Origin: Haliclona indistincta
Taxonomy: Eukaryota; Porifera; Demospongiae; Haplosclerida; Chalinidae
Assembly (NCBI GenBank): GCA_964017065.1
Contig: OZ024784.1
Span: 14,985,152 to 15,049,151 of the forward strand
DNA length: 64,000 nt
Direction of reading: 5' to 3'
Below, in pieces: positions 40,985-46,632 of the stretch (the stretch's first letter is position 1; each line of letters begins with the position of its first letter). Under the pieces are notes generated by a model. The model saw only the letters and a program-made list of their open reading frames with translations. It did not search any database and had not been told where the DNA came from. The position numbers and the translations under genes are program-made.

Positions 40985-43900
40985 ATGGGAGGTCGTAAGA
41001 GAAAATTGCAAACGGATGATCGTGGCAGTGTTACTAGTATTGAAGAAACGACATTAGACAAGGTCGAATCAAGTGAGGACGAGGAGGAGTTTGTGAGGGA
41101 ACAGGCAGAAGCTGGTAGACTACAGTTCTTGCTAGACCTGGATCATTCGTAAGATAACCCACGGCATTGTAATTACATGCTTCATTTGCATCTCAGTTCG
41201 AAGCTTACTGGTAGTTCAAAAAATAAAGGCAAAGCTGCTCCGATACCTCCAAGCAGTCTTGTGGGTGTGACAAAGAAACCATGGAAAGGTGTGAAGAGGC
41301 CTCGACTGGCACAGGGCAGCGAGAGTGAGGAGGAGGAAGGAGAAGGTTACGAGACACAGCCCCGTTTACCAGAGTGGACAAGCGAGAAGGAAAAAGAAGA
41401 AGATGGAAAGAAACTTCATTTCCGTCTTCCGTTGAAGGATAGAAAAGGGTTAATACAACAGAGACCAGTGGTCTTAGAAGGTCAGTTTGAAACGTTGTTC
41501 ACATTAATTCTTATGTTTTTTGGGCTTTCAGACGTCTTAGGGACTCAACAGGAAGAGAGTGAGTTAATTGACAGTTTGTGTAATTTTGTAGTTAATGCAA
41601 GGTTGTTTCAGTGCTTGAAGTAAATGAAGAAGAACAAGAAGTTGATAAAGAGGGAGAAGACGGTGACTCATCGGAACTGCCTGCTGTACTCAGTGCTGCT
41701 CAGCTGCTTATTGTGAAAGAGAGGAAACTGAGACAACGCAAAGAGTTGATTGCTGATCTTGCCTCACGCCTTGTGGAGGACCCTGAGGAAAATGTACAAA
41801 ATTGTACTCTTTAATGCATTTTATCATTTTCTCTTGCTAATAGATTGATCTATTAAAGAGACTCAGACTATTATGCTCTGAGAGGGACCCACATGTTGCT
41901 CTTACTGTGAGAAAGTTAGCCATGGCTTCACTGATGACCGTCTTTAAGGACATTGTTCCAAGGTGTGTGTTATCTACATGTAGTAGCCTCTAATGTATGT
42001 TGTTCACTGAACTGTTGTAGTTACTCAATACGAGAACTAACAGATATTGAGAAAGGTGCGAAGGTAATAATGCACATGATGTTGTGGTAGATGTGTGTAT
42101 TTGTGCTTGTAGGTCTCAAAAGATGTTCGGAAGTTGAGAGATTTTGAACAGACTCTGCTCACCAACTACCAGCATTTTCTGACATTATTAGACGACACCA
42201 TTCGAGGTTTGATAACAAAAGCCTCTTTTACTCATTCCCGTCTTCTCAGTTGGGCTAGCTGAGGCAATGACTAACAAGAAGGTGAAGGGAATTACTTGGT
42301 TGCAGAACAAGCACTCTATTGGTGATAAAGGAATGCAGGTTATAACTGGTCTAGGTTCAGCTTGGTCATTAAAATAATGTGTTTGTGTATGTTCTTTGCT
42401 AGAGACTAGCCGAGGTTGCTCTACAATGCCAGAGCGAACTAGCACAAGCACTCGCACACTTTAATTTTCGGAAGAATATTTTTACTGTGCTTGTGCAGCG
42501 TATGAACTCACATTCGCTGGATGGAAAGGTAATGCACACACACACACACACACACACACACTGTACTGAGTCTTGTGGGAGTAGATTGTTGATAAATTTA
42601 ATAAGTGATGTGAGGACTGAATCAATATTCATAACTGTTGTTATACACAATACAGAATAATCTCCTATGCAAAATAAATTATATTAGTAGTATAATGATC
42701 AGCAGTGTTGATGTAACAAAGAGACTAGCTTTTTCCATTTGACTGCCTCCTCCAAGGTCGATACCGGTCGGTACTGGTGACTTGACTATGTCTTGTATGG
42801 CGCAGGTGTTGGTGTGTTGGTAAGGTAGGTTGCTGCAGTTCATATGCTGGGGCCATTTCAGATCAAGCTGTTGAAGCATTGCAATGCAATCATCTCTCAC
42901 TAACTCACACAGGTCTCTGCAGAGAGGCACTCTAGTAGTAGTGGCATTGCATGGTGGTAGGTAGTAGAGACACAGAAACTGTTCCATTTGAGCAGAACAT
43001 TGTAGTTTTAGAAAGAATGTGAATCGTGTTAGTTCCTCCTCTGCTTGTTGCTGGTCAGTGTGTCCTCTTGAGTTAGGCAAGCTGATCAGTGAGTAGCCAA
43101 ACTGACGGCAGTGACTGGTTTTGTCCAGGTGGGTGCAGTGTGGTGTAGGAGAGGGTAGCTGTGTGTGACTATTGGCTGATGGATGTGTATTAGCAGCATC
43201 AACAGCAGTGTGGAACGATATTGGTGACGGATGAGGTGATGCAGACAGCATTGGAGTATGTAGAAAGGAGAATGATGTTGCGATATCATCACTTGGTGTG
43301 TAGCTTGTATCAAACAGGTAAGTGAAGCTGATTGTGATGCTACTCTGTGCATTTGATGTGCTTTGAACAGTTGATAGTACGTTAGATTGTTGTGAAGGCT
43401 GGTCTGTCTGTGTAACAGATGGTTGAATAGCGCTAGAAATCACTTGTTGGATCTCGATAGTTTGAGCACTAAATGTTGCTGCTGGCACAGTTTGTAGCTG
43501 GCTGTTATCAGAGAACAGATTATGAGAGGTCATGAATTGACTGGGGGCCTCGTTTGTGAGTGGATTAGGTGTCTCGTACAAGCTGGGGTTCTCCTCAATA
43601 GTGAACAGGCTGAGGCTCTCTTCAGTAGTGAATGAGCTGGTGTCATCCTCGATACTAAGTGTACTGGGGTTCTCTTCAGTAGTAAATGGACTAGGGTTCT
43701 CAAATGATCTGAGGTTCTCCTCGATAGTGAACAGACTGGGGCTCTCATCAATAGAGAGCAAGCTGGGACTCTCTTCGATATCATCAATGGTGAACGAGCC
43801 TGAGCTCTCCTCAATATTTGCTTCAATAGTGATGCTTGCTTCAGGTGTTGCAGTAGCCAATGAACTGTCTTCAGATGTAGTGGTAGCAGGGGCTGTTTGG

Positions 43901-46632
43901 AGGTTATTCAGCACACTTGTAGCCAGCTTGCTCGAGGGGTCTCTTGCGGTACTCGATATTTCGAGCGCAGTTGGGGTGGGGCTGATAGCGCTGGAGCCGG
44001 AGCGTTCGTCTGGTCCGAAGCACCATGGCTCGTCATCCTTCGTTGGGAATCGATCACAAGTCAAATGAGCAGGCCACTGAGCCCCGTACCTTGTAAAGAT
44101 TGGCAGGCAACCGTCTTGCACGTGTATACACAGCTCTCGGCACGGTTTAACATCGATATCTAGGGGCATTGCACTCTTGCAGAAAGGAATATAGTAGGCA
44201 CAGAGAAAATGAAGGAGGTACGGCGAGCAATTTATGTCCAGTAATGGGTGGAAGTCATCCAGTTCTCCGTTTGCTTCGTCTTGCGTGCGATGGCCAGAGG
44301 GATTGGGGAACGAAGTATTTTCATAGCCGAGTGAAGCGCAGATCGAAGTACTGGAGATAGCCACACAGCGTCGAGACGGCAAACATGTTCCATGGTGAAT
44401 CAGCGTACAGCAACACACAGAGACCATCCACAGCTGAAATGCAACCGTTCGATTGCGCCTGGTCTTGTGCTCAACCATTTTCTTTCTCTGGATTTGCCTG
44501 TCACTAAACTTAAAGTGCGAGCAAGGGCGCCCTTGGTGCGAGAATGTTTTCCCAATGGGACATTGTGTTTACTCTTTGCCACAAGACTAAACATGCATGC
44601 TTGCATTCACATTTTGGACAAGCAAGTATACATTATTTCACATTTCAGGTGACTCGGCTGTGCTGTGATGCTGTCTCAAGAGTATTCCAGAATGATATTG
44701 TTGGCGAAGTATCTCTGGAGGTTAGACCCATTCATGCATGCTGTTTGATCCCTAATAATGCTCATAATAGTTGCTGCAACTCATCACTAAGATGCTTAAA
44801 TCTAGAGGGTTCAATACTACACCAGAGGTATTACATTGGGTCTATATACTGACTATACTATAATGCTATTCCTCTCCTGTAGGTACTAAGAACATTCTTG
44901 CACTTACAGCTGCAGAGTGCCGAAGGACCAACCACGCAAACTAAGAAAGATAAGAAAGAATCAAAGATGACCAATAAGCAGAGAAAGAAATTGGAGAAAC
45001 AGAGAATGAGCAAGAAGGAGAGAAAGGTAGGGAGTGTGTGAGACTGTGAAGAGACTGTTTCATAAAGATACAGCAAGGAAAGCTGAGGGCCCAGGTTGAC
45101 AAGGAGCTACGTGAGACTGAAGCTGAAGAGAGCAAACAAAAGAAGAGTCGACTGGTATGTGAATAATCAGTTTGTTAGCAATAACATGGTTTTCTATGAA
45201 CACACTGCAGCAAACAGAATGTATCAAACTGGTCTTCTATGTCTACTTTCGTATCCTTAAGACAGCAAAACACTCACCACTACTGGGAGTGGTGCTGGAA
45301 GGATTGGCTAAGTTAGACCTAAATAATTTATATCGTTGTATTAACCTCCTGTCATAGGTATGCTCATCTTATAAACGTGGATTATTTTGGTGACTTGATG
45401 AGTGTCCTACACTCGCTCATGTCAACCAATGTAAGTGTTTTGTTTCACCTCCTATCATCTCTCCTGCCCACTATCCAGAGTTTGTCACACACGGACAGTA
45501 TGCAGTGTATAATAACCGCATTTGAGATTCTCTCTGGTCAAGGTGTGTGTGTGTGTGCTTGCATGGTCGCCCAACTATCACACAACTATACTCACTACAG
45601 GAGAAAGTTTGAACATTGACCCGAGACAGTTTTTCTGTAGACTATACTGCAATCTTCTACAGTTGGATTTCTGTATGTTATGCTATGTTGTGTTTACCAT
45701 CATTCATTGGTTTGTGACTTTGTACAGCTGCAGCTTCTGATGACGTAAAACTCACTCTCCAGAGTTTGGACAAGATGATACGAAAGAGAAGAGAGGTATG
45801 TGTATAGTAGGTGTATGTGTTCATTGTATGGAAGTGTTCATTGTTTGCATGTGATGAGTGTGGGTCCTCTGGTGTTGTTGCAGGTGTCTTGTCAGCGTGT
45901 GTTGGCCTTTGTCAAAAGGCTGTCAACAATGAGCCTGCAGCTTCCTCCTGGTACAGCTCTAGCCATAATGGCTGCACTGAGACACTTCATGCAGGTACAC
46001 AAACCTTGCCGGTCATTAAGGTGCATATCCGGCGTCCACCCATAGGGCTATCCTCTACAGTGTGACCAGCTATTAGACACCAGTGAGGCAACACACAGTG
46101 CACCATTCCAGCCGGATGTTCCTGATCCTGAACTGAGTGGTGTTCAATCTACCATGCTCTGGGAACTGTCTACATTAAGTGTGAGTTTGATAATGAACAT
46201 ACAATAATTTTGCTCTAACTCTAGCAACATTTTGACCCATGTGTGTCTGGCTATGCTAAACATCTTCTTGTTGGGGCACCATCACAAGGCAAAGGGTCCC
46301 TTCATCCTGACTACAGCCGCAGGTTACCACCACATACTATTATTATCCTGGACAATGTACTTTCTCTCAGATCTCCTGAACAATTGTTGGATTCATTTTC
46401 CTGGCCAGCAGTAGATGTATTCATGAAAGTCCCATCATCTCTGCCCAGTAAAGTTAGTTTAGTAGTCACATGTTCTGTTGCTCTCATTCAAATCCACACT
46501 TAGGTCAAAACAAAAACACTTGCAAATACTACCTCTGACCCATTGTGGGTAAACAGGAAATTCTCAGATTATGTGTTGAGAATTGAAAGAGATTGTGTAC
46601 CAGAGACTGATAACATACTATTGGCAGTATAA
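40985..46632 (+). CDS. NOC3L: NOC3L nucleolar complex protein 3, spliced, with nested gene
   Basis: Nucleolar factor for 60S pre-ribosome export and replication licensing. Start ATG 40985 (MGGRKRKLQTDDRG), acidic N-terminal half, then AQLLIVKERKLRQRKELIADLA, DPHVALTVRKLAMASLMTVFKDI, PSYSIRELT, LRDFEQTLLTNYQHFL, KMTNKQRKKLEKQRMSKKER, VYFRILKTAKHSPLLGVVLEGLAK, LINVDYFGDLMSVLHSLM, AFEILSGQGESLNIDPRQF, CQRVLAFVKRLSTMSLQLPP and YAKHLLVGAPSQGKGSLHPD. The last exon ends at 46632. One intron (42529-44648, 2120 nt) is about twenty times the usual size and encloses an antisense gene. Other introns are short. The family match is firm. Confidence 0.93.
42537..42561. repeat. (CA)n microsatellite at NOC3L long-intron donor
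   Basis: About 12 CA units immediately after the GTAATG donor of the intron that houses the nested gene. CA runs near donors can enhance splicing through hnRNP L in vertebrates; whether that applies here is unknown. Confidence 0.8.
42679..44478 (-). CDS. Double Frizzled-CRD protein, probably GPI-anchored, intronless and nested
   Basis: Single 599-residue frame on the opposite strand within the NOC3L intron. Hydrophobic signal at residues 12-30. CRD1 (residues 38 to about 155) has the ten-cysteine Frizzled pattern with NCSPYLLHFLCAYYIPFC and PCRELCIHVQDGC. CRD2 (448-559) repeats it: QCSAQMEQFLCLYYLPPC, LCRDLCELVRDDC, NCSNL. The linker is Ser/Thr-rich, probably mucin-like, with repeats of the type ENPSxFTTEE and ESLSLFTIEENPS (residues 217-317). 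The C-terminus is small/polar (GGGSQ) followed by a hydrophobic end FVTSTLLIIILLI with no cytoplasmic residues, as in GPI-anchored proteins. Likely binds Wnt or another lipidated or protein ligand at the cell surface. There is no seven-helix or netrin domain. Confidence 0.85.
   Translation of the reverse strand: MVEHKTRRNRTVAFQLWMVSVCCCTLIHHGTCLPSRRCVAISSTSICASLGYENTSFPNPSGHRTQDEANGELDDFHPLLDINCSPYLLHFLCAYYIPFCKSAMPLDIDVKPCRELCIHVQDGCLPIFTRYGAQWPAHLTCDRFPTKDDEPWCFGPDERSGSSAISPTPTALEISSTARDPSSKLATSVLNNLQTAPATTTSEDSSLATATPEASITIEANIEESSGSFTIDDIEESPSLLSIDESPSLFTIEENLRSFENPSPFTTEENPSTLSIEDDTSSFTTEESLSLFTIEENPSLYETPNPLTNEAPSQFMTSHNLFSDNSQLQTVPAATFSAQTIEIQQVISSAIQPSVTQTDQPSQQSNVLSTVQSTSNAQSSITISFTYLFDTSYTPSDDIATSFSFLHTPMLSASPHPSPISFHTAVDAANTHPSANSHTQLPSPTPHCTHLDKTSHCRQFGYSLISLPNSRGHTDQQQAEEELTRFTFFLKLQCSAQMEQFLCLYYLPPCNATTTRVPLCRDLCELVRDDCIAMLQQLDLKWPQHMNCSNLPYQHTNTCAIQDIVKSPVPTGIDLGGGSQMEKASLFVTSTLLIIILLI

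What the first reader, a model, noticed from the sequence alone, without database searches (positions are those of the whole stretch)
42679..44478. Nested, intronless cell-surface protein with two Frizzled CRDs and a GPI-type tail
The sequence shows two complete ten-cysteine Frizzled-type CRDs, one near each end, joined by a Ser/Thr-rich linker with ENPSxFTTEE repeats. There is a signal peptide and a hydrophobic C-terminus with nothing after it. Known CRD families (Frizzled, Smoothened, SFRP, ROR, MuSK, corin) do not, to my knowledge, have this layout. A tethered two-headed CRD could act as a Wnt decoy, co-receptor or bivalent bridge. It fills 1800 of the 2120 nt of a NOC3L intron in antisense, suggesting birth by retroposition or domain duplication within the intron.
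Basis: partly seen in the sequence, partly recalled or inferred. Interest (0 to 1): 0.75.

Follow-up and report, generated by a model that had tools for sequence, protein, structure and literature searches.

The report
Sponge two-headed Frizzled-type surface protein
This sponge gene, tucked inside an intron of another gene, makes a probable cell-surface protein with two copies of the domain that Wnt receptors use to grip Wnt signals; it belongs to an existing family (a sponge relative is already named DCRD), so it is a good example of a little-studied kind rather than a new invention.

Summary
Window 44478→42679 (minus strand) is one intact 599-codon frame: signal-peptide-like start, two complete ten-cysteine Frizzled CRDs (Pfam Fz, 172 bits, 2 stretches), a disordered Ser/Thr-rich linker with 9-residue repeats, and a hydrophobic C-terminus of GPI-signal type. 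It lies antisense in the 2120-nt intron of a 19-exon NOC3L gene whose other 17 introns are 43-162 nt. Both CRDs are modelled confidently and keep mostly hydrophobic groove positions. The layout is not new: it recurs in 32 database rows besides this genome's own, one an Amphimedon queenslandica protein named "DCRD", and in a second gene of this genome. Within the window's clade each head groups with the same head of the other members, and a duplication private to this gene is rejected (p 4e-6), so the protein was not born in this intron. The GPI-type tail is shared by 32 of 36 family rows. Most likely it is a membrane-tethered, bivalent Wnt-binding regulator; binding, anchoring and expression are inferred, not shown. 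New member of a known kind.

The parts
42679..44478 (-). complete coding frame of the two-CRD (DCRD-type) protein, 599 aa plus TAA stop, no intron
   Evidence: chance control
44398..44445 (-). hydrophobic core of the putative signal peptide (aa 12-27)
   Evidence: hydropathy; modelled as helix 8-28
44014..44367 (-). CRD1, Frizzled-type, ten Cys (aa 38-155)
43138..44013 (-). Ser/Thr-rich linker (aa 156-447), predicted disordered
   Evidence: pLDDT mostly under 50
43573..43773 (-). degenerate 9-residue repeats in the linker (aa 236-302)
   Evidence: repeat unit read by eye
42793..43137 (-). CRD2, Frizzled-type, ten Cys (aa 448-562)
   Evidence: best solved match Frizzled-7, E 8.5e-22
42727..42753 (-). 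GGGSQMEKA stretch (aa 576-584): candidate GPI attachment site and spacer
   Evidence: site inferred from recalled GPI-signal rules
42682..42726 (-). hydrophobic C-terminal 15 residues (aa 585-599), GPI-signal type, nothing after it
42529..44648 (+). host intron of NOC3L (2120 nt, GT-AG, phase 0); the other 17 introns are 43-162 nt
40985..46503 (+). NOC3L gene model, 19 exons spliced by hand (761 aa; 3' end uncertain)

Best explanation
It is a member of the DCRD family (the name is from a database row; I read it as double CRD): a secreted protein kept on the outer face of the cell membrane by a GPI anchor, holding two Frizzled-type lipid-binding heads apart on a long, probably O-glycosylated stalk. 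It most likely binds Wnt proteins through their fatty acid and so holds, buffers or withholds them at the surface of the cell that makes it, a tethered counterpart of SFRP. It has no part that could signal inside the cell. Shown: intact frame, two complete CRDs, mostly hydrophobic groove positions, family-wide tail and layout. Inferred: GPI attachment, Wnt binding, glycosylation, and that the net effect is local sequestration rather than help to Frizzled.
Against: No transcript, protein, binding or anchoring data. A one-span membrane protein without cytosolic tail would look the same. Four of 36 rows lack the tail by the threshold used (P0016 weak; P0033, P0034, P0036 with other C-termini). 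The groove is not uniformly kept: clade-A CRD1 is polar at position 92 in 11 of 17 rows (9 Ser, 2 Thr) and at 138 in 10 of 17, clade-A CRD2 has lost the groove proline in 17 of 17 and has Thr, Ser, Lys or Gly at 134 in 10 of 17, so ligands may differ. CRDs of ROR2 and MuSK show that a Frizzled-type fold need not have a lipid groove (PMC11219042, passages read).
Confidence: 0.6

Rival explanations
1. Wnt co-receptor or presenter: the two heads pick up Wnt and hand it to Frizzled on the same cell, raising signalling (as RECK or ROR help other receptors; RECK recalled, ROR2 from PMC11219042 passages).
For: Membrane tether, long flexible stalk and two heads suit hand-over; CRD1 and CRD2 form separate clades in 17 of 17 clade-A proteins tested, as if with separate roles.
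Against: No sequence evidence tells presenter from decoy; no partner-binding module found.
Confidence: 0.3
2. Ligand is not Wnt: CRD2, whose groove proline is replaced by a large hydrophobic residue, binds a sterol or another lipid, and the protein is mainly a mucin-like adhesion or lipid-handling protein.
Against: That proline is also missing in 7 of 13 Frizzled-7TM rows and 8 of 14 single-CRD rows, so its loss alone says little. Both heads are closest to Frizzled, not Smoothened, by sequence (CRD2 to Frizzled-7 E 8.5e-22, best Smoothened 8e-05).
Confidence: 0.15
3. Soluble or shed SFRP-like antagonist: the tail is inefficient or the protein is cut off the membrane, so it works at a distance.
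For: Three family rows end without the tail (P0033, P0034, P0036); Sfrp-like genes without netrin domain are described in Amphimedon (PMC2959043, passages).
Against: Tail kept in 32 of 36 rows although 29 of the 30 other rows of the family alignment are only 29-43% identical to the window protein.
Confidence: 0.2
4. Not a working gene: an unexpressed retrocopy stranded in the NOC3L intron.
For: Intronless; nested antisense; no expression data.
Against: Intact 599-codon frame; a database row on a 222,130-bp contig, presumably another assembly of the species, is identical but for one residue (P0002); all twenty cysteines are invariant in the eight-row alignment and tail and layout match other members; ATG context AAAATGG and an ATTAAA hexamer after the stop.
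Confidence: 0.05
5. One reading: the two heads arose by duplication or retroposition within this intron.
For: The gene is intronless and fills an intron that is out of line with its neighbours.
Against: Window CRD1+CRD2 as sisters rejected, p-AU 4.07e-6; the CRD1 and CRD2 clades each span 17 of 17 clade-A members tested; a two-CRD paralogue lies on another contig. A duplication at the root of clade A is not rejected (p 0.355) but would predate this gene.
Confidence: 0.03

Closest known systems
DCRD, LOC100634725 precursor, Amphimedon queenslandica (P0022)
   Same: 381 aa, two ten-Cys Frizzled CRDs, linker rich in Ser/Thr by eye, hydrophobic C-terminus with two residues after the core; same clade-A CRD1 and CRD2
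   Different: linker 79 residues against 292, no 9-residue repeats seen by eye; 33% identical to the window protein in the family alignment; whether it is nested in NOC3L is unknown
Second two-CRD gene of the same genome (L039:4380-5489, P0010/P0011; clade B)
   Same: two CRDs, hydrophobic tail, single open frame
   Different: on another contig (C10), 45-residue linker, 34% identical to the window protein in the family alignment
SFRP family
   Same: signal peptide, Frizzled CRD, no 7TM
   Different: no netrin (NTR) match, two CRDs, C-terminal anchor signal. A netrin-bearing SFRP does exist in the sponge Ephydatia (PMC6386478, passages)
Frizzled receptors
   Same: CRD sequence and fold
   Different: no seven-helix part
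Corin, and multi-CRD cnidarian proteins P0012 (five CRDs) and P0037 (LDLa, three CRDs, CUB)
   Same: more than one Frizzled CRD in one extracellular chain
   Different: other domains, or an N-terminal membrane anchor read by eye in P0012; the CRDs of P0012 and P0037 fall outside the DCRD clades (corin CRDs were not in the tree)
RECK and glypicans (GPI-anchored, CRD-like; recalled)
   Same: expected GPI tether plus CRD-type domain
   Different: Pfam FZ_RECK 15.6 bits (cut-off 27) and Glypican 10.9 bits (cut-off 26.4): below threshold

Membership tests
DCRD (double-CRD proteins) | two Frizzled-type CRDs with ten Cys each and no other Pfam domain over cut-off | tested here: met
DCRD (double-CRD proteins) | CRD1 and CRD2 fall in the same CRD1 and CRD2 clades as Amphimedon DCRD | tested here: met
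   A_CRD1 100/98, A_CRD2 100/97, both holding P0022
DCRD (double-CRD proteins) | hydrophobic C-terminal tail (GPI-signal type) | tested here: met
   actual GPI attachment not tested
SFRP | C-terminal netrin (NTR) domain | tested here: not met
   no NTR match listed up to E 1. (Whole-genome NTR search found none, but its control did not ring either.)
SFRP | soluble, unanchored secretion | not testable with these tools
   tail suggests otherwise
Frizzled receptor | seven-helix Frizzled domain PF01534 | tested here: not met
   genome hits lie elsewhere
Corin | LDLa, SRCR and trypsin domains with two Fz (recalled) | tested here: not met
   Fz only
ROR/MuSK | kringle or Ig plus kinase | tested here: not met
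GPI-anchored proteins | signal peptide, small-residue site, spacer, C-terminal hydrophobic segment | tested here: met
   by hydropathy and eye only
GPI-anchored proteins | covalent GPI, PI-PLC release | not testable with these tools
   bench work needed
Wnt-binding CRDs | hydrophobic residues at the FZD7 lipid-groove positions | tested here: met
   8 of 8 positions hydrophobic (Ala counted) in both heads of the window protein; less uniform over the family; no docking done
Wnt-binding CRDs | measured Wnt or fatty-acid binding | not testable with these tools
   none

The most novel reading that the evidence does not exclude
The two heads of one chain close on each other like the fatty-acid-bridged dimers described for FZD5 and FZD7 CRDs, CRD1 as the Frizzled-like half and CRD2 as a remodelled partner (groove proline 88 absent in 23 of 23 CRD2 rows), so that one GPI-anchored molecule clamps the Wnt fatty acid inside a single, built-in cavity. 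DCRD would then be a sponge-lineage Wnt lipid clamp, a Wnt-handling layer for which I know no counterpart in other animals.
Probability: 0.12. Interest if true: 0.7.

Novelty: new member of a known kind. Interest (0 to 1): 0.38.

Why it matters
PMC2959043 (passages read) remarks on the paucity of diffusible Wnt antagonists in early animals and on netrin-less Sfrp-like genes in Amphimedon; other sponges are credited with several SFRPs (four in Halisarca, PMC8235796; SFRP B, E and F in Ephydatia, PMC7385117; passages read). A family of two-CRD proteins with a conserved GPI-type tail suggests that sponges also handle Wnt at the cell surface by tethered CRDs, which can be tested with the tools that already exist for Frizzled CRDs. 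It also warns annotators: names such as Frizzled or SFRP can hide this architecture.

Tried and rejected
Rejected: chance frame; duplication private to this gene; the idea that the layout is unheard of; SFRP, Frizzled, corin and ROR/MuSK membership.

Led nowhere: genome contigs and viral-contig scans for relatives with their flanks (4 and 21 pattern matches, none a relative); NOC3L protein search to see whether other sponges carry both genes on one contig (107 rows at E 1e-60 or better, the only named sponge is Ephydatia muelleri, no longest-contig length shared with a DCRD row, so nesting elsewhere is undecided); naming the sponge by assembly size; the NTR search of the genome, whose control also stayed silent; bacterial promoter scan, not meaningful here; listing the frames around the C10 paralogue, which did not settle whether it too is nested. 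AU tests left the deeper order of the four CRD groups open: A1+B1 p 0.096, A1+A2 0.355, B1+B2 0.142, all four 0.083. The tree has only 117 columns for 83 rows and warns of long branches. In the VIA listing the window's CRD2 appears only against Smoothened-, MuSK- and Ror-type entries because one best row per entry is shown; that is no evidence that it is unlike Frizzled. Literature: the one search for DCRD with sponge and Wnt gave 3 papers, unrelated by title; no paper on two-CRD sponge proteins was seen in the listings. The paper I recall as the likely source of the name, Adamska et al. 2010, and Yan et al. 2014 are not held, so whether they discuss the layout or the tail is unread. A search for GPI-tethered Frizzled CRD decoys gave 2 papers, not read.

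Full report
OBSERVATION. The window's minus strand from 44478 to 42679 reads as one frame of 599 amino acids and a stop, 629 codons stop to stop. In 1000 dinucleotide-preserving shuffles of the 2120-nt intron the longest frame was 281 codons. Pfam finds two Fz stretches, 172.3 bits in all, and nothing else over its cut-off; in the six-frame genome search the two ends score 99.7 and 86.3 bits against a cut-off of 32.1. Each CRD has ten cysteines and the 292-residue linker has none; 97 of its residues are Ser or Thr. Among solved chains CRD1 is closest to Frizzled-7 (E 8.6e-26) and so is CRD2 (E 8.5e-22).

HOST GENE. I spliced the surrounding plus-strand gene by hand: 19 exons, 18 introns, all GT-AG, one protein of 761 aa. 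It is NOC3L: part of it, running through the junction in question, matches the chain called Nucleolar complex protein 3 homolog in 8fkv (E 1e-13; human by recall), and the best database match of the whole is a protein of the sponge Ephydatia muelleri (49% identity over 80%). Seventeen introns are 43-162 nt; the one that holds the CRD gene is 2120 nt. That supports the nesting and suggests, as an inference, that the gene was inserted into a short intron. The 3' end of the NOC3L model is uncertain.

RELATIVES. A search with the window protein gave eight rows, one of them the same protein with a single residue changed (K453N). A search with an eight-row alignment gave 86 rows at E 1e-10 or better. 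By a CRD profile built here I counted 36 proteins that have two CRDs or are family members cut at one end (P0001-P0011, P0013-P0036, P0038; P0002 and P0011 repeat P0001 and P0010), so 32 database rows besides this genome's own; P0003 and P0038 are cut short at the N-terminus and P0034 and P0036 have a broken second CRD. One is named: P0022, Amphimedon queenslandica LOC100634725 precursor, UniRef name DCRD. The others bear no organism, so calling the whole a sponge family is an inference. Linkers run from 25 to 385 residues.

TAIL. The last 15 residues are SLFVTSTLLIIILLI, directly before the stop, after GGGSQMEKA. A hydrophobic 15-mer (mean Kyte-Doolittle at least 1.7) ending within nine residues of the C-terminus occurs in 32 of 36 family rows (30 of 34 without the two repeats); the misses are P0016 (1.18), P0033, P0034 and P0036. 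The same test is met by 0 of 107 NOC3L rows, 1 of 25 single-CRD rows over 500 aa (that one is P0003, an N-truncated family member), and 12 of 24 short single-CRD rows, so such tails are not private to the two-CRD proteins and tethering may be common among these CRD proteins. GPI attachment itself is inferred.

ORIGIN OF THE TWO HEADS. A tree of 83 CRDs holds 23 of the 36 family proteins (13 left out by me as repeats, near-copies or cut short), plus single-CRD, Frizzled, cnidarian and two vertebrate CRDs. It puts the 17 clade-A CRD1s on one branch (100/98), the 17 CRD2s on another (100/97), and clade-A CRD2 with clade-B CRD2 (98/90); clade-B CRD1 does not join clade-A CRD1 in the best tree, though their union is not rejected (p 0.096). 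Forcing the window's own two heads together costs 84 log units (p-AU 4.07e-6). So the two-headed form is older than this gene and its intron; how it first arose is open. A second two-CRD gene lies on contig C10 as one open frame, collinear with the window protein. Of the six Frizzled-7TM places at least two hold CRD and seven helices in one frame (643 and 544 codons), while two on C1 have them in separate frames, so lack of introns is common among CRD genes here but not universal.

MECHANISM. No intracellular part and no 7TM means no signalling of its own. A tether, a long stalk and two groove-bearing heads fit a protein that catches Wnt at the membrane. I lean to buffering or sequestration (tethered SFRP analogue) over hand-over to Frizzled, because nothing in the sequence points to a partner; this is judgement. 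Wnt matches exist at three places and Frizzled-7TM matches at six in the genome (lower bounds).

KNOWN OR NEW. Sfrp-like genes without netrin domain are in print for Amphimedon (PMC2959043, passages); PMC6386478 (passages) notes that Amphimedon SFRPs group with Frizzleds and describes a netrin-bearing SFRP in Ephydatia; PMC8235796 (passages) lists four SFRP paralogues in Halisarca. The double-CRD member of Amphimedon was deposited and named. I saw no held paper on the tail, the two CRD clades or the nesting, but the likely primary paper is not held. Verdict: new member of a known kind, interest 0.38.

Noticed in passing
L043:3976-4896 (C4) and L044:4679-5485 (C5), against L041:3417-5348 (C10): Two CRD-only frames elsewhere in the genome are 90-93% identical over 650-671 bp to the CRD end of a 643-aa single-frame Frizzled but lack the seven-helix part: recent CRD spin-offs that may act as decoys.
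   Followed up: partly
L046:2194-4101 (C2:7.506-7.508 Mb) with Fz hit L012: Kringle and tyrosine kinase in one frame (membrane helix by eye) beside a Fz domain: a ROR/MuSK-like receptor in this sponge.
   Followed up: partly
G000 C2:13.94-13.96 Mb, C7:7.68-7.71 Mb, C1:11.67-11.79 Mb: Clusters of weak Fz hits, possibly arrays of divergent CRD genes.
   Followed up: no
L039 and L040, C10:1.61-1.63 Mb: The two-CRD paralogue and two single-CRD genes lie near Frizzled matches of C10 (1.546-1.694 Mb): a CRD gene neighbourhood.
   Followed up: partly
P0012 and P0037 (database proteins): Proteins named Frizzled-7 of Porites harrisoni and Frizzled-5 of Exaiptasia diaphana have five CRDs, or LDLa, three CRDs and CUB, and no seven-helix domain in their Pfam lists: likely misnamed.
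   Followed up: partly
window 42535-42561: (CA)13.5 microsatellite just inside the 5' end of the NOC3L host intron.
   Followed up: no
window 42529-42678, minus strand: ATTAAA polyadenylation-like hexamer after the stop, still inside the intron; no AATAAA in the stretch printed.
   Followed up: no
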